From: Terriglobia bacterium
GTDB lineage: Bacteria > Acidobacteriota > Terriglobia > Bryobacterales > UBA6623
Assembly (NCBI GenBank): GCA_009838515.1
Contig: VXRL01000086.1
Span: forward strand, 1 to 64,000
Reading direction: 5' to 3'
Length of the DNA: 64,000 bases
Numbering within the stretch: the first letter of the stretch is position 1; every line of letters starts with the position of its first letter. A program made the translations under genes and the position numbers. Below the pieces are notes generated by a model. That model did not search any database and was not told where the DNA came from. It was given only the letters and a program-made list of their open reading frames with translations. Below, piece after piece: positions 22,941 through 28,008 of this stretch.

Positions 22941-22978
22941 TTGACTTTTATTTCGATAATCTTGGAATAATAGAAATA
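22941..22978 (+). promoter_or_regulatory. Promoter and probable ArsR operator
   Basis: TTGACT at 22941 and AATAAT at 22966 form a sigma-70-like pair with a wide 19-base spacer in an AT-rich patch. Within it TATTTC (22949-22954) and GAAATA (22973-22978) form an inverted repeat overlapping the start codon. ArsR/SmtB regulators bind AT-rich inverted repeats in this place. The operator is an inference. Confidence 0.5.
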
Positions 22979-23283
22979 TGGATGCGGAGAAGGCCATCGC
23001 GGCTTTGGCCGCGCTGGCTCAAGAAACTCGGCTCGATGTCTTCCGACTTCTCGTTCGAGCCGGTCCGGGGGGTCTCGCTGCAGGAACCATCAGCCAGCGG
23101 CTGAGCGTCCCAAGCGCCACCATGTCCTTTCACCTGAAAGAGCTCAGGAACGCGCGAGTTGTGCGCTGTCGGCGGGAGACCCGGTCACTGATCTACAGCC
23201 CCGACTTCGCCGTGATGAACGCCCTTGTCGAATTCCTGACGGAGCATTGCTGCGAGAAGACATCCTGCCGGACGTGCCCCTGA
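22978..23283 (+). CDS. arsR: ArsR-family metalloregulator
   Basis: A 101-aa winged-helix repressor. The recognition region is GLAAGTISQRLSVPSATMSF followed by HLKELRNARVVRCRRE. The wing is RETRSLIYSPDF. The C-terminus has cysteines CCEKTSCRTC (residues about 90-99), which could bind arsenite or another thiophilic metal. It is the first gene of a two-gene unit with the CadI/ArsI-like protein 35 bases downstream. It probably represses its own promoter and releases on metal binding, as is known for the family. Confidence 0.88.
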   Translation: MDAEKAIAALAALAQETRLDVFRLLVRAGPGGLAAGTISQRLSVPSATMSFHLKELRNARVVRCRRETRSLIYSPDFAVMNALVEFLTEHCCEKTSCRTCP

Positions 23284-23318
23284 TCCAATCAATCCTGTCC
23301 GACCGCAAGGAGAAACAA

Positions 23319-23777
23319 ATGCGCCTGCAACTGGCTCTCAACGTTAGAGATCTGGATTCCGCTGTCGACTTCTATTCGAAGCTGTTCGGGGTTGAGCCCA
23401 GAAAGCGGAAGCCCGGGTATGCCAATTTCGCGATCGCGGAGCCGCCTCTCAAGCTCGTACTATTCGAGGCCCCGTCGGCCGGGGAGCGGCTCAATCACCT
23501 GGGCGTGGAGGTGTTCGACGATGCCGATCTGAGCCGCGCCGAGCAGCGTGTCAAGACCAGCGGCCTCCAGCACCTGACCGAAAACGACACGATCTGCTGT
23601 CACGCGCGACAGAACAAGGTTTGGGCGCTGGAGCCCGAGGGCTTGAGATGGGAGTGGTACCGGGTAATCGAGGACGTGAAGTCGGAGAAGCCGTCGTCCG
23701 GCGTGGAAGCTGCCGCCGAAGACTGTTGCGATGTTGATTCTCGGATCTCGTGCTCTCAGTCAACGCCGAACCTATGA
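23319..23777 (+). CDS. ArsI/CadI-family VOC metalloenzyme
   Basis: A 152-aa vicinal oxygen chelate protein. It matches the ArsI/CadI family closely: LQLALNVRDLDSAVDFYSKL, PGYANFAIAEPPLKLVLFEA, NHLGVEV, NDTICCHARQNKVWALEPEG. The vicinal C93-C94 pair binds trivalent organoarsenicals in ArsI. H60 and E112 fit two metal ligands, while the third position is Gln4 as in CadI-type members. ArsI cleaves the C-As bond of methylarsenite; CadI is a cadmium-induced relative, so the exact substrate is open. The C-terminus adds another Cys pair. AAGGAG precedes the ATG at 23319, and the gene is co-transcribed with arsR. Confidence 0.85.
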   Translation: MRLQLALNVRDLDSAVDFYSKLFGVEPRKRKPGYANFAIAEPPLKLVLFEAPSAGERLNHLGVEVFDDADLSRAEQRVKTSGLQHLTENDTICCHARQNKVWALEPEGLRWEWYRVIEDVKSEKPSSGVEAAAEDCCDVDSRISCSQSTPNL

Positions 23778-23821: not shown

Positions 23822-24652
23822 TCAAAATCGCTCAAACGGATCCCATGAACTGCGTTCACGGCGCAGTTCGTAGTCTTGCTCTTCCTCCTCGAAATCCAAC
23901 AGCTGTTGCTCGTCTTCCCACCAAATCAACGCTACGACTGAGTCGCTGGTGGTACGAAACCAGCTCTCTCGCACCTCGTATCTCCGAGAGTGTTCATGAT
24001 CGAACCACCGATCCGCGCAAATATCCTCACTCCCTTGATCGCTGTCGGCACTAGCGGCACCGGTCGATCGGTCTAACGATTCCAATGGAGCGAACTTTGG
24101 CGGCACGGAATCCCCTCGAATGTACCAAGCCCTACGGCCAGACTTGTATGAGGCCAAGACTGCCGGATACGATCCGCGGCGAACCAGTTTGATCGACGTT
24201 GCGGTAAGGCTCGTCCGAAACCTCTCTGCCATATCTCTCAAAGTTTCGAGATCTAAGGATCGCCCCTGAGCGATCGGGTCAAACAGATAAGCGGGTAGCA
24301 AGAGGTCACTGGCAAACTCGTTCGCATTTCGCTCGCGGGCTCTACCGATCGCGCTGATGTCGAGATCGGACTCCTTGCAACTGAATGCCACGCTCCCCCT
24401 ATCGCGTATCCAATGGCCCAACTCGTGGCCTACCGAGAACCTCTTCCGCACTCGGGAACTCTGCTCCCGCACGGTGATGATTGCCTTGTCACCCATGCCG
24501 ACGAGCGTCGCCTCGGACCCCGTCAGGTCTGCATACCTGGTCGTCGCTCCGCATGTGTACGCGATCACTTCGACATCAATCTCTTCAGGTCGGGTAATCC
24601 CCAGCTCTTCAAGCAGCTGCCTCGGTGTCTTGCGCGACTCACTCGTCTCCAT
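23822..24652 (-). CDS. ImmA/IrrE-family metallopeptidase
   Basis: About 276 aa with the zinc-peptidase motif H76-E-L-G-H80 and third-ligand region ERNANEFASDLLLP (E112), the ImmA/IrrE signature. Such peptidases cleave repressors, for example of mobile elements or in DNA-damage responses. The C-terminal 100 residues, acidic and Trp-rich, are unrecognised. The ATG at 24652 lies inside the previous gene's end (14-base overlap), so translation is likely coupled. It is the last gene of a three-gene operon divergent from the ubiquitin-like conjugation genes. The target could be the regulator that binds the shared promoter, but this is speculation. Confidence 0.88.
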   Translation of the reverse strand: METSESRKTPRQLLEELGITRPEEIDVEVIAYTCGATTRYADLTGSEATLVGMGDKAIITVREQSSRVRKRFSVGHELGHWIRDRGSVAFSCKESDLDISAIGRARERNANEFASDLLLPAYLFDPIAQGRSLDLETLRDMAERFRTSLTATSIKLVRRGSYPAVLASYKSGRRAWYIRGDSVPPKFAPLESLDRSTGAASADSDQGSEDICADRWFDHEHSRRYEVRESWFRTTSDSVVALIWWEDEQQLLDFEEEEQDYELRRERSSWDPFERF

Positions 24653-25058
24653 CTGGTAAATCCAAGTCGTCCAAGCTACCCAACTCCGCAAGACTTCTCA
24701 GTTGGACTAAGACATCTTCGTCAGTGAGCTCGGAAAACTCCCGGTTCTGAAGCGTTAGGCTCTCACGCTCCATCGCGCGTTGCAGCAAGCGTCGACGTCC
24801 CTCGGGAGATGGTGGGAGTTGGTACGCGAGTTGGCGCACTTCTTGTGCTTGCTCTTGGTATGCCTTTCTGGCTTCTGCCAGCTTCGCTTTCCGGTGCGAC
24901 TCGAGAGCCCGCTGCAGGGTGTTGTGAACCTGTTCGGCGCACTGATGCGGATCGGAACCTTCAAGCAGGGCATTCTCAAGAATATCCTCGGCCGGAGCCT
25001 CCTCGATGTAGTGGGCAACACCGTCGAGGATCCTTCCCAATCGATCATCGAACGGCAT
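24639..25058 (-). CDS. Hypothetical helical/coiled-coil protein in ImmA operon
   Basis: About 139 aa from the ATG at 25058, which follows a GGAGGGG ribosome site and overlaps the previous gene by about 14 bases. Mostly alpha-helical, with a charged coiled-coil section (TLQRALESHRKAKLAEARKA, then YQEQAQEVRQLAYQ) and an acidic C-terminus. No domain is recognised. Position between a sigma-like regulator and a metallopeptidase, all overlapping, suggests an obligate functional set. A role as anti-sigma or adaptor is possible but not shown. Confidence 0.65.
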   Translation of the reverse strand: MPFDDRLGRILDGVAHYIEEAPAEDILENALLEGSDPHQCAEQVHNTLQRALESHRKAKLAEARKAYQEQAQEVRQLAYQLPPSPEGRRRLLQRAMERESLTLQNREFSELTDEDVLVQLRSLAELGSLDDLDLPDGDE

Positions 25059-25683
25059 GTTGGTCACCCCTCCCTTCCAAGACTCTCTCGGTCCTTCTCT
25101 TGATCCGGCGCATCGCGGCTCGAATCGTTTTGTCTTCCCAGCCAAACTCATCCCGGATCTCTACGAGCGACATGCCGTCTTCCAACCCTGCGATCACGGC
25201 GAGAGCATCCTCGTCACCTGCACATGCCTCTCCGATCTGATCTGCGATCTCACTGCGCTCTCTCGCCTCCTCCATTCGGATCAATTCATCCTCTGGGCTC
25301 GGAGACTGAGATGCTAGCTTGTCGAACGCTTGCCGCCCGTTCCCATCTGAGGCGCTAGTTTCGGTGCCGCTTTCAGACAGCGCGTACTCAGGCGACTGGT
25401 GGTTCCTGCTATGGTGCGCTGCCCACGACGAAGCTGTGCTCCACATAGCCCCCATGAGAAGCCCCTTCAGGTCTACTTTCTCGGGATTCCATGTCCGGCT
25501 TCCTTCGAGGACCTTCAGGATCGCTATTTGAAGGAGCTCCTCCGCTGTCCTTCCGTTGGCGGCCCATGGCCCGATCCTCGCGATTCGGTTTTTTGCGAAT
25601 TCGCGCAATCGGACAAACTCGCCCGGCTCTCGTGCTAGTGCCTCGATTGCACTCGCAACTTCTGCATGGGTTGCCCTACCCAC
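25045..25683 (-). CDS. Sigma-factor-like regulator
   Basis: A 212-aa protein with a sigma-70 region-2-like N-terminal half (GRTAEELLQIAILKVLEGSR with TWNPEKVDLKGLLMGAMWST) and a helix-turn-helix region 4 (GMSLVEIRDEFGWEDKTIRA AMRRIKR, near 168-200). The linker is long and acidic. It resembles ECF-type sigma factors or sigma-like phage and plasmid regulators. First gene of the leftward operon. The 214-base divergent intergenic region with TGTCCA half-sites is the natural place for it or an accompanying repressor to act. Confidence 0.75.
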   Translation of the reverse strand: MGRATHAEVASAIEALAREPGEFVRLREFAKNRIARIGPWAANGRTAEELLQIAILKVLEGSRTWNPEKVDLKGLLMGAMWSTASSWAAHHSRNHQSPEYALSESGTETSASDGNGRQAFDKLASQSPSPEDELIRMEEARERSEIADQIGEACAGDEDALAVIAGLEDGMSLVEIRDEFGWEDKTIRAAMRRIKRRTERVLEGRGDQHAVR

Positions 25684-25762
25684 TGATTCTTGCGTCCCGG
25701 TCCTACGCGCCTGCCCAAGGTCAGGATAACGGACTGCTCCTCAACCTTCAATGCTCAAGAAC

Positions 25763-25810
25763 TGTCCACATTGGACACGTGACGAAGAGTTTTCGCGCCA
25801 AGTGTCCAAT
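25763..25810. promoter_or_regulatory. Candidate operator with three TGTCCA half-sites
   Basis: In the divergent promoter region TGTCCA-CAT-TGGACA (25763-25777) is a perfect palindrome. A third half-site lies at 25803-25808, and ATTGGACAC (25770-25778) with GTGTCCAAT (25802-25810) forms a 9-base perfect inverted repeat. The position between the regulator operon and the conjugation operon suggests binding by one transcription regulator controlling both. Only the symmetry is seen; the binder is not known. Confidence 0.6.
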
Positions 25811-25897
25811 CTAGCTCCACGCCGAGCATAAGGCTATAGAGGCACATCGAGCCTCGTTTCGAACTCGGCGGCAACCCCGCCATAGGAGGTCACTGCA

Positions 25898-26617
25898 GTG
25901 ACAGACGATTCCAACGACAAAGAGGTTGACCTAGTCGATCTCGAGGCAGAACAAACCGAGGGTCCAAAGCCTCTAGCACGGCGCTATCGGATCCGGATCG
26001 ACCGAAAGCACTACATCGTCGAGCAGCCGGAAATCACGGGGCGCGAATTGCTCGACCTAGCCCGCAAGGACGCCATCGAGCACTTCGACGTGTATCGCCG
26101 ATACAGAGATGGCAGAGTCCTGAAGGTCGAGGTGGACGAAACCATCGACCTTCGAGAACGCGGAGTCGAGCGGTTCGTGACGATGAAGAAGCAGGTGACG
26201 GATGGAGAGCCGCCGGTCAGTGACCGGCGGCTCGACTTCCAGATGCCTGAAGATGATCGTGCCTTCCTCGACTCGCTAGGGCTAGCGTGGGAGGCCGTAC
26301 GAGAACAACAGCACCGCTGGATTCTGATTCACGGCCACAAGCTTCCGATGGGCTTCGACCACGAAACAGTCACATTGGCGTTCCTGATTGGTGACAGCTA
26401 TCCGCCAGATCGCCTCGACATGGTGTACGTCCACCCGCAGCTCCGGCTACAGAGTGGCGCTGCCATTCCAAGCACGTCAGACCAATGCATCGATGGCAAG
26501 AACTTCCAAGCCTGGTCCCGGCACTATGACGACTGGCGGGAAGGCGTCGACGACCTCGGCACGCACTACGTGCGCATGATCCGGGCAGTTGAGGCCGATG
26601 CATGCCAGAGGCAATGA
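25898..26617 (+). CDS. Ubiquitin-like domain fused to prokaryotic E2 (family E)
   Basis: A 239-aa fusion. Residues 28-95 match the Multiubiquitin domain: RRYRIRIDRKHYIVEQPEIT then GRELLDLARK and VDETIDLRERGVERF. Residues about 112-235 match Prok-E2_E: EDDRAFLDSLGLAWEAVREQ, WILIHGHKLPMGFDHETVTL, SYPPDRLDMVYVHP, DGKNFQAWSRHYDDWREGVD. The family is the bacterial counterpart of ubiquitin-conjugating enzymes. There are only two cysteines, C197 and C236, so C197 is the best active-site candidate. A single Ubl is present and it has no free C-terminal glycine. The GTG start at 25898 is fixed by AGGAGGT (25884-25890). The stop overlaps the E1 gene. Confidence 0.88.
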   Translation: MTDDSNDKEVDLVDLEAEQTEGPKPLARRYRIRIDRKHYIVEQPEITGRELLDLARKDAIEHFDVYRRYRDGRVLKVEVDETIDLRERGVERFVTMKKQVTDGEPPVSDRRLDFQMPEDDRAFLDSLGLAWEAVREQQHRWILIHGHKLPMGFDHETVTLAFLIGDSYPPDRLDMVYVHPQLRLQSGAAIPSTSDQCIDGKNFQAWSRHYDDWREGVDDLGTHYVRMIRAVEADACQRQ

Positions 26618-28008
26618 TGAACTACGGCCTCCGCCTGACAAGGGAGCAGCACAGGCAACTCGAAGACCACGTCCTACGATCCGATGGCTTAGAGGCCGGA
26701 GCGCTACTACGCTGTGGGCGCCGAGTTGGACGTAAGCGACACATCCTAACGACGATTGAAGTCAGGCCGATCCCATTAGCGGCCTGCCAGCGCACCGCCG
26801 TCAACTTGACCTGGCCGACAGATTTCGCCCTCGATTTCATTGAGGCCGCAGCGAAGCGTGGTCAGGCCGTCGTGAAGGTACATAGCCATCCCGGAGGTTT
26901 TGAGCACTTCTCGCACTTGGATGACGCGGCGGACTACAGCTTCCTTGGGGCGGTTCATGACTTTTGTGGTGACGGCCAACCCCACGGCAGTGCCGTTATG
27001 CTGCCGGGCGGGCGGATGTTCGCGCGCGCTCTGACTGCCGATGGTTCGTTTGCGCACTTCGATCGAGTCTGTTCGGTGGGGGAGCAAATCTCGCTTTGGC
27101 TGTCCGAGTGCGACTACCGTCCGCCGGAGTTTGTGTCACGGCACGCCCAGGCATTCGGAGCGGGAACCCTTGAACAACTACAACGAATGTCAGCGGCCGT
27201 AATTGGGGTCTCCGGCACCGGTAGTCCGTTGGTGGCCGAGCTTGCTAGGTCCGGCATCGGCCGGTTGGTCCTTGTCGATCCCAAGCTCGTAAAGGAGGCC
27301 AACTTGAACCGAATTGCTTTCTCCCGGCACGCTGACATTGGACGCCCAAAGGTTGAGGTCGTTGGCGACGCAGTGAGGGCAATGGGCTTTGGCACTGAAG
27401 TCGTCCAAGTGCACGGTGACGTTGCTGATCCCGACACGGTTCAGACCGTGGCCGAGTGCGACATCTTGTTCGGTTGCATGGACTCGCTTTCGGGAAGGGA
27501 CATTCTCAATCGGATAGCCGCCTTCTATACCTTGCCGTACATCGATGTCGGTGTGTCATTGGATGCCCGCCCCAACGGAGGGGTCGACGCGGTGTGGGCA
27601 AGCGTCCATTACCTGCAACCGTCGCGGTCAAGCTTGCGTTCGCGGGGCGTCTTCAATGGTGAGGAAGTGCGAGCGGAAGCAATGAGGCGGAATGATCCTG
27701 ATGAGTACGCAAAACAAGCGGAGCAACGGTACATTCGCGGTGTAGAGGAGGGGCGTCCTGCTGTGATGCCTCTGAACGCCTTTGCGTCGTCGGTGGCCGT
27801 CCTAGAATTCTTTGCTCGACTTCATCCTTTTCGCTACGACAACCGCTTCGCCCTGCAGCGATTCGCTCTCCATGACGGCTTGACTACCCGAGAAGCCGAA
27901 TCTGAATTCGCCCCCTGCCCCCTACTGGGCAAGTACGTAGGGCAAGGAGATGTCGATCCAATCCTTAACAGGCCCGCGCTGAGCGGCTTCGGCGCGAGAG
28001 ACAGCTGA
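26602..28008 (+). CDS. JAB deubiquitinase-like domain fused to ThiF/E1 domain
   Basis: A 468-aa fusion (ATG 26602; an ATGA overlap start at 26614 is equally plausible). The N-terminal JAB/JAMM metalloprotease has a complete motif: E31, H94-S-H96-P97, S104 and D107 (HxHPx6SxxD). From about 195 a ThiF/E1 adenylation domain follows: AAVIGVSGTGSPLVAELARS, LVLVDPKLVKEANLNRIAFS, ADIGRPKVEVV, and FGCMDS. Adenylation would activate a Ubl C-terminus; the JAB domain could trim or remove Ubl. Cysteines after the nucleotide site are C286, C292 and C439, so the transthiolation residue is unclear. It works with the overlapping Ubl-E2 gene. Related fusions occur in CBASS (Cap2/Cap3) and Bil systems. Confidence 0.9.
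   Translation: MPEAMMNYGLRLTREQHRQLEDHVLRSDGLEAGALLRCGRRVGRKRHILTTIEVRPIPLAACQRTAVNLTWPTDFALDFIEAAAKRGQAVVKVHSHPGGFEHFSHLDDAADYSFLGAVHDFCGDGQPHGSAVMLPGGRMFARALTADGSFAHFDRVCSVGEQISLWLSECDYRPPEFVSRHAQAFGAGTLEQLQRMSAAVIGVSGTGSPLVAELARSGIGRLVLVDPKLVKEANLNRIAFSRHADIGRPKVEVVGDAVRAMGFGTEVVQVHGDVADPDTVQTVAECDILFGCMDSLSGRDILNRIAAFYTLPYIDVGVSLDARPNGGVDAVWASVHYLQPSRSSLRSRGVFNGEEVRAEAMRRNDPDEYAKQAEQRYIRGVEEGRPAVMPLNAFASSVAVLEFFARLHPFRYDNRFALQRFALHDGLTTREAESEFAPCPLLGKYVGQGDVDPILNRPALSGFGARDS

What the first reader, a model, noticed from the sequence alone, without database searches (positions are those of the whole stretch)
23822..28008. Divergent ubiquitin-like conjugation module coupled to a sigma-factor/ImmA-IrrE operon
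Two overlapping genes encode Ubl-E2 and JAB-E1 fusions, a compact bacterial ubiquitin-like set. Facing them is an operon of a sigma-like regulator, a coiled-coil protein and an ImmA/IrrE metallopeptidase. Established knowledge: Ubl/E1/E2/JAB sets operate in bacterial antiviral systems (CBASS Cap2/Cap3, Bil); ImmA/IrrE peptidases cleave repressors. Inference: the protease arm regulates or executes a defence response using the Ubl arm.
Basis: partly seen in the sequence, partly recalled or inferred. Interest (0 to 1): 0.85.

Follow-up and report, generated by a model that had tools for sequence, protein, structure and literature searches.

The report
Sigma-factor switch controlling bacterial ubiquitin-like operon
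A bacterial ubiquitin-like protein-tagging operon (a known type called Bub) sits opposite a three-gene switch, a dedicated sigma factor, a small helical protein and a CapP-type protease, and the same switch with the same paired promoters recurs in front of other anti-phage systems, so it looks like a portable, previously undescribed on-switch for bacterial immunity.

Summary
The + strand genes are a Bub (bacterial ubiquitination-like) core: a BubA-BubB (Ubl-E2) fusion and BubCD (JAB-E1), matching solved Citrobacter Bub proteins. That part is known. The facing operon is an ECF-type sigma factor, a small helical protein and a CapP-family M78 protease. It is not the published CapH+CapP pair, because there is no XRE repressor.

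The new result lies in the intergenic DNA. Two copies of one bipartite promoter (-35 TGTCCAAT, -10 GAGCAT[A/T]) point outward, one at each operon, and have no other copy with at most one mismatch in the 5.84 Mb genome. The same three genes recur at about 30 loci in three phyla, facing Bub, CBASS, 6A-MBL or small unknown operons. 36 of 40 detected half-sites have 18-19 bp spacing (0.9 expected), while the distance between the two promoters ranges from 6 to 178 bp. That fits sigma-dependent promoters, not a repressor operator.

Best model: sigma drives both operons, the helical protein restrains it, and the protease, probably sensing DNA damage, destroys the restraint. The promoter part is well supported; the anti-sigma and cleavage steps are inferred.

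The parts
25045..25683 (-). ECF-type sigma factor, 212 aa (regions 2 and 4)
   Evidence: TIGR02937 E 2.4e-8, sub-threshold; profile A1 vs PDB SigH 5zx2 E 5.5e-6; Foldseek top hits almost all ECF sigma factors; VIA Z 9.5 on region 4
24639..25058 (-). small helical protein (139 aa), putative anti-sigma factor and protease substrate
   Evidence: conserved third partner in nearly all trio loci; no Pfam, PADLOC, NCBIfam or PDB match; AF2 all-helical, low confidence
23822..24652 (-). CapP-family ImmA/IrrE (M78) metallopeptidase with HELGH zinc motif and C-terminal domain
   Evidence: Pfam M78; PADLOC capP E 1e-53 over full length; profile vs PDB CapP 7t5t E 7.7e-24 including the C-terminal region; H, E, H and third-ligand E invariant
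25750..25777 (-). predicted sigma-dependent promoter of the trio operon: -35 TGTCCAAT, -10 GAGCATT
25803..25830 (+). predicted sigma-dependent promoter of the Bub operon: -35 TGTCCAAT, -10 GAGCATA
25898..26617 (+). BubA-BubB fusion: ubiquitin-like domain (res. 30-97), C-terminal Gly103, then E2 (res. 116-232)
   Evidence: Pfam Multi_ubiq + Prok-E2_E; profile boundary 110/111 equals the C-terminus of solved Citrobacter BubA and start of BubB; Methylocystis BubA ends ..QTEG* as a separate gene
26602..28008 (+). BubCD: JAB isopeptidase fused to E1 (ThiF)
   Evidence: Pfam; Citrobacter BubCD 9ea4 E 1.1e-66 over residues 9-460; JAB E31, H94, H96, D107 and E1 motif residues invariant

Best explanation
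This is a Bub operon under a dedicated, autoregulated sigma-factor switch. The ECF-type sigma factor recognises two near-identical outward-facing promoters, one for its own operon and one for Bub (shown: the two sites, their uniqueness in the genome and their conservation; inferred: that this sigma reads them). In unstressed cells the small helical protein, co-translated with sigma, binds and silences it (inferred). The CapP-family protease, activated by a cue that in CapP and PprI is single-stranded DNA, cleaves that protein (inferred), releasing sigma and producing a self-amplifying burst of transcription of both operons. Bub products then act: the JAB domain of BubCD cleaves the Ubl-E2 fusion after Gly103 and the E1/E2 pair attaches the Ubl to targets (inferred from the domain boundary and from solved Bub proteins). 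The cassette is portable and drives CBASS, 6A-MBL and other operons elsewhere.
For: Sigma family membership. Trio of fixed order sigma, helical protein, M78 in about 30 loci. Nested outward repeats with score >=13 of 14 in 20 of 31 intergenic regions against 0.23 expected. 36 of 40 half-sites have spacing 18 or 19 against 0.9 expected, and 21 perfect GCATA against 0.4. At 16 of 16 loci where both halves were scored cleanly, the two share the same spacing. Promoters 152 and 178 bp apart in Paracoccus and Celeribacter still keep the element intact, which excludes a palindromic operator as the explanation there. In the own genome the only matches with at most one mismatch are these two sites. Motif absent from three CapH+CapP-like Bub loci and one CapW-like Bub locus. 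Protease is CapP family. A planctomycete Bub locus fuses the helical protein's N-terminal module to a CapH-like XRE domain and still keeps the sigma gene, linking the helical protein to the known CapP substrate position. Gene overlap typical of stoichiometric pairs. Precedent for a protease freeing a sigma factor in immunity: Calp (PMC12751052).
Against: No experiment exists. The helical protein has no detectable similarity to any anti-sigma factor and its model is poor. TIGR02937 is below its curated cut-off. A few trio loci (e.g. L018, L028, L061, L058) show no clear promoter pair. The signal is borrowed from CapP and PprI. The window's Bub lacks the accessory DUF6527 gene, absent from the whole genome, so full activity of this copy is not assured.
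Confidence: 0.62

Rival explanations
1. The sigma-like protein is a repressor (a CapH equivalent) that binds the paired elements as an operator; the protease cleaves it, directly or with the helical protein's help, and de-represses Bub.
For: This is how CapH+CapP works (PMC13373217); the elements form a nested inverted repeat at most loci; XRE repressors occupy the same place in related Bub loci.
Against: The protein has sigma regions 2 and 4. The two half-elements lie 6 to 178 bp apart while each keeps 18-19 bp internal spacing, which is promoter-like rather than operator-like. Elements point outward, one per operon.
Confidence: 0.15
2. Sigma is the positive regulator, but the helical protein is a co-activator or assembly partner and the protease degrades sigma itself, ending the response (negative feedback).
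For: Nothing in the sequences says which partner is cleaved; all three are co-expressed (gene overlaps).
Against: Known relatives (CapP, PprI) act to switch expression on by destroying an inhibitor; the planctomycete fusion puts the helical module on a CapH-like protein, the known kind of substrate.
Confidence: 0.15
3. The two operons are independent neighbours in a defence island, and the promoter similarity comes from duplication of a common promoter.
For: Trio and Bub each occur without the other.
Against: Same divergent arrangement in at least ten other Bub loci and the same promoter pair facing other immune operons; only two copies in the genome.
Confidence: 0.05

Closest known systems
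Bub (bacterial ubiquitination-like) operons; group 6e polyUbl operons of Iyer et al. 2006
   Same: BubA Ubl, BubB Prok-E2_E, BubCD JAB-E1; solved Citrobacter BubB and BubCD are direct homologues; Ubl-E2 fusion and JAB-E1 already listed in PMC1779556
   Different: No DUF6527 accessory gene here; regulated by a sigma trio instead of the CapW, CapH+CapP or CapK+CapS controllers named in PMC13373217
CapH+CapP, DNA-damage controller of CBASS and Bub
   Same: Protease of the CapP family (7t5t, E 7.7e-24), encoded divergently from the immune operon
   Different: No XRE repressor; its place is taken by an ECF sigma factor plus a helical protein; paired promoters replace an operator
CalpL/CalpT/CalpS of type III CRISPR
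   Same: Same logic: protease destroys an anti-sigma factor and frees a sigma factor in the cytoplasm (PMC12751052)
   Different: Calp protease is Lon-SAVED activated by cA4; here an M78 protease without SAVED, facing Bub, CBASS or 6A-MBL
ECF sigma / anti-sigma pairs such as SigH or RpoE
   Same: Two-region sigma factor, co-transcribed partner, autoregulated promoter with fixed -35/-10 spacing
   Different: Partner resembles no known anti-sigma factor; a co-encoded M78 protease; a regulon of only two promoters

Membership tests
Bub operon | Multiubiquitin-type Ubl (BubA) | tested here: met
   Multi_ubiq E 1.5e-14; profile A4 matches Citrobacter BubA 9ea8
Bub operon | Prok-E2_E family E2 (BubB), without a conserved cysteine | tested here: met
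   E 3.3e-32; BubB 9eav E 4.6e-23; no Cys conserved in the alignment; cysteines of the window protein are only C197 and C236
Bub operon | JAB-E1 fusion (BubCD) with intact motifs | tested here: met
   BubCD 9ea4 E 1.1e-66; JAB and E1 residues invariant
Bub operon | Ubl conjugation activity | not testable with these tools
   needs biochemistry
CapH+CapP | CapP-family M78 peptidase | tested here: met
CapH+CapP | Adjacent XRE-type HTH repressor CapH | tested here: not met
   the operon holds only sigma, helical protein and M78; no HTH_3 or XRE match
CapH+CapP | ssDNA-activated cleavage of the regulator | not testable with these tools
   needs biochemistry
ECF sigma factor | Regions 2 and 4 only, about 200 aa | tested here: met
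   note TIGR02937 is sub-threshold
ECF sigma factor | Autoregulated promoter with constant -35/-10 spacing | tested here: met
   (sequence evidence only)
ECF sigma factor | Adjacent anti-sigma factor | tested here: inconclusive
   helical partner conserved but resembles no known anti-sigma factor
Calp system | Lon-SAVED protease CalpL | tested here: not met
   protease is M78
CBASS | CD-NTase cyclase in the locus | tested here: not met
   no cyclase match among the five window proteins; relatives of the trio do face cyclases
CapK+CapS | GHKL kinase plus STAS-wHTH repressor | tested here: not met
   no such domains

The most novel reading that the evidence does not exclude
A fourth family of immune-operon controller: an ECF sigma factor held by a new type of anti-sigma protein and freed by a CapP-type protease on DNA damage, with a private two-promoter regulon, moved as a cassette between Bub, CBASS, 6A-MBL and still unknown defence operons.
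Probability: 0.5. Interest if true: 0.75.

Novelty: new variant of a known kind. Interest (0 to 1): 0.62.

Why it matters
All three published controllers of this kind (CapW, CapH+CapP, CapK+CapS; PMC13373217) work by lifting repression. This one would work by releasing a dedicated sigma factor, which would give positive feedback and probably very low basal expression. Its promoter signature (TGTCCGA, 18-19 bp between cores, GCATA) can be used to find immune operons that no homology search knows, such as the small DUF2188/DUF3892 operons seen here. It also gives a testable reason why CapP-type proteases sit beside immune operons that lack a CapH repressor.

Tried and rejected
Rejected: CBASS Cap2/Cap3 or Bil as the identity of the Ubl set (the best match is Bub); simple CapH+CapP (no XRE repressor); a palindromic operator (separation of the halves varies 6-178 bp); a global sigma regulon (only two sites with at most one mismatch in 5.84 Mb). 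The primary papers on Bub (Gong 2025, Ye 2026) and Bil (Chambers 2024) are not held, and the CapP paper (Lau 2022) was not read; I could not check whether they already noted the sigma trio or counted it as CapH+CapP.
Full report
Observation. The genome is an acidobacterial Bryobacterales MAG; a 99% identical copy of the BubAB gene lies in JAPPMG010000077. 25898-26617(+) carries a Multi_ubiq domain and a Prok-E2_E domain, and 26602-28008(+) carries a Prok-JAB and a ThiF domain. Facing them, 25045-25683(-) is sigma-70/ECF-like (TIGR02937 E 2.4e-8, below its curated cut-off), 24639-25058(-) matches nothing, and 23822-24652(-) is an M78 (ImmA/IrrE) peptidase.

The + strand operon is Bub. The E1-JAB protein matches solved Citrobacter BubCD at E 1.1e-66 over nearly its whole length and the E2 matches Citrobacter BubB. 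Iyer et al. 2006 (PMC1779556, group 6e) already listed such operons, including Ubl-E2 fusions and the JAB-E1 fusion. Chambers et al. 2026 (PMC13373217) call them Bub, report 544 of them, and state that protection against phage has not been shown. JAB residues E31, H94, H96 and D107 and the E1 motif residues are invariant among nine relatives. No cysteine is conserved in the E2 alignment. In the window the Ubl is fused to the E2. The profile boundary that separates BubA from BubB in the solved proteins falls at Gly103, and the separate Methylocystis BubA ends in ..QTEG. The fusion therefore probably has to be cut there to give a usable Ubl C-terminus, most simply by the JAB domain (inference). 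The usual DUF6527 accessory gene is absent from the whole genome; Mesorhizobium and Roseomonas Bub loci have no annotated copy either.

The - strand operon is a recurrent trio. The sigma, helical protein and M78 genes occur in this fixed order, usually with overlapping ends, in Paracoccus, Celeribacter, Pseudosulfitobacter, Sinorhizobium, Aestuarium, Pontibacter and other acidobacterial or viral contigs facing Bub genes. They face CBASS in Cereibacter, Roseivivax, Bradyrhizobium septentrionale, Pseudoalteromonas and one acidobacterium. They face the anti-phage 6A-MBL system in Bradyrhizobium sp. 26S5, where both proteins exceed the NCBIfam equivalog cut-offs. They face other multiubiquitin or E1/E2 genes in Spirosoma and acidobacteria, and small operons of a 92 aa protein with DUF2188, or DUF3892. 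Conversely other Bub operons carry a two-gene HTH+M78 pair or a WYL regulator. In a sample of 396 Acidobacteriota genomes, Prok-E2_E occurs in 14 and the helical protein in 7, adjacent in two. In a tree of the sigma factors, Bub, CBASS and other cargo interleave, so the cassette has probably been swapped between cargos.

Identity of the parts. A profile of 11 sigma homologues hits M. tuberculosis SigH (5zx2) at E 5.5e-6 across regions 2 and 4, with E. coli sigma-E also listed (E 0.034). RefSeq itself names several of them sigma-70 family factors. The AF2 model is modest (pLDDT 66), but the top Foldseek hits are almost all ECF sigma factors and region 4 aligns with Z about 9. The protease profile hits solved CapP (7t5t) at E 7.7e-24 through the C-terminal region. 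PADLOC's capP model fits these proteins (E 1e-50 to 1e-67) far better than the peptidases of the two-gene loci (E 1e-9 to 1e-16). The helical protein has no relatives in any library. In a planctomycete Bub locus, however, its N-terminal module (residues 12-59 of the profile, 15.8 bits) is fused to an XRE domain beside a CapP-like gene, and the sigma gene is still present.

The promoters. Intergenic regions of trio loci carry two copies of one bipartite element facing outward. A nested-repeat score of 13 or more out of 14 occurs in 20 of 31 loci against 0.23 expected from dinucleotide shuffles. Scoring -35 and -10 cores directly, with spacings of 12 to 25 allowed, gives 40 half-sites; 36 have spacing 18 or 19 (shuffles 0.9), and 21 have a perfect GCATA (shuffles 0.4). 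Both halves of a locus share the same spacing at 16 of 16 loci, while the distance between halves runs from 6 to 30 bp, and is 152 and 178 bp in two related plasmids. That is the geometry of two promoters for one sigma factor, not of an operator. In the window the sites are 25803-25830(+) and 25750-25777(-), and they are the only matches with at most one mismatch in the 5.84 Mb genome. Three two-gene and one WYL-regulated Bub loci lack the element. The core sequences used for scoring were read off these same loci, so the spacing and the unsupervised nested-repeat test are the more independent measures.

Mechanism. Shown: the gene set, its recurrence, the promoter pair and its uniqueness. Inferred: the sigma reads the promoters; the helical protein is its anti-sigma factor; the protease cleaves the helical protein. 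The trigger is likely ssDNA, because CapP and the related PprI are activated by ssDNA (PMC13373217; PMC10904395, title and abstract). The logic parallels Calp, in which a protease destroys an anti-sigma factor to free a sigma factor (PMC12751052). Autoregulation would give a switch-like, self-amplifying response.

Standing. The Bub core is already known and this copy is a new member of it. The controller is a new variant of the immune-controller class. It fails the defining feature of CapH+CapP (the XRE repressor) while sharing its protease. I found no paper describing the sigma trio, but the key Bub papers are not in the library.

Noticed in passing
L020:3652-5880: Planctomycetes bacterium Pla133 plasmid: sigma factor, then a protein fusing the helical module's N-terminus to an XRE domain, then a CapP-like peptidase and Bub, all on one strand; a possible intermediate between the sigma trio and CapH+CapP.
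   Followed up: partly
L026:3553-3831, L027:3361-3881, L030:3402-3917, L148:3324-3840, L024:3608-3892: Small operons of a 92 aa protein with DUF2188, or of DUF3892, driven by the same promoter pair as CBASS and Bub; candidate unknown defence or stress operons.
   Followed up: no
L025:3573-3851: Cereibacter CBASS operon begins with an unmatched 92 aa gene, similar in size and position to the first gene of the small operons.
   Followed up: no
L139:1412-2683: IS256 element inserted between BubB and BubCD in Celeribacter indicus.
   Followed up: no
L145:4136-5714: Trio without a divergent partner gene; the upstream genes are on the same strand, yet an outward promoter for the trio remains.
   Followed up: no
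PADLOC model PDLC04141 (capP); window:23822-24652: The model fits the trio's peptidase much better than the peptidases of two-gene HTH+M78 loci, so PADLOC 'capP' hits may often mark the sigma trio.
   Followed up: partly
22978-23777: ArsR-type regulator and glyoxalase-family gene just upstream of the locus, possibly an arsenic operon.
   Followed up: no
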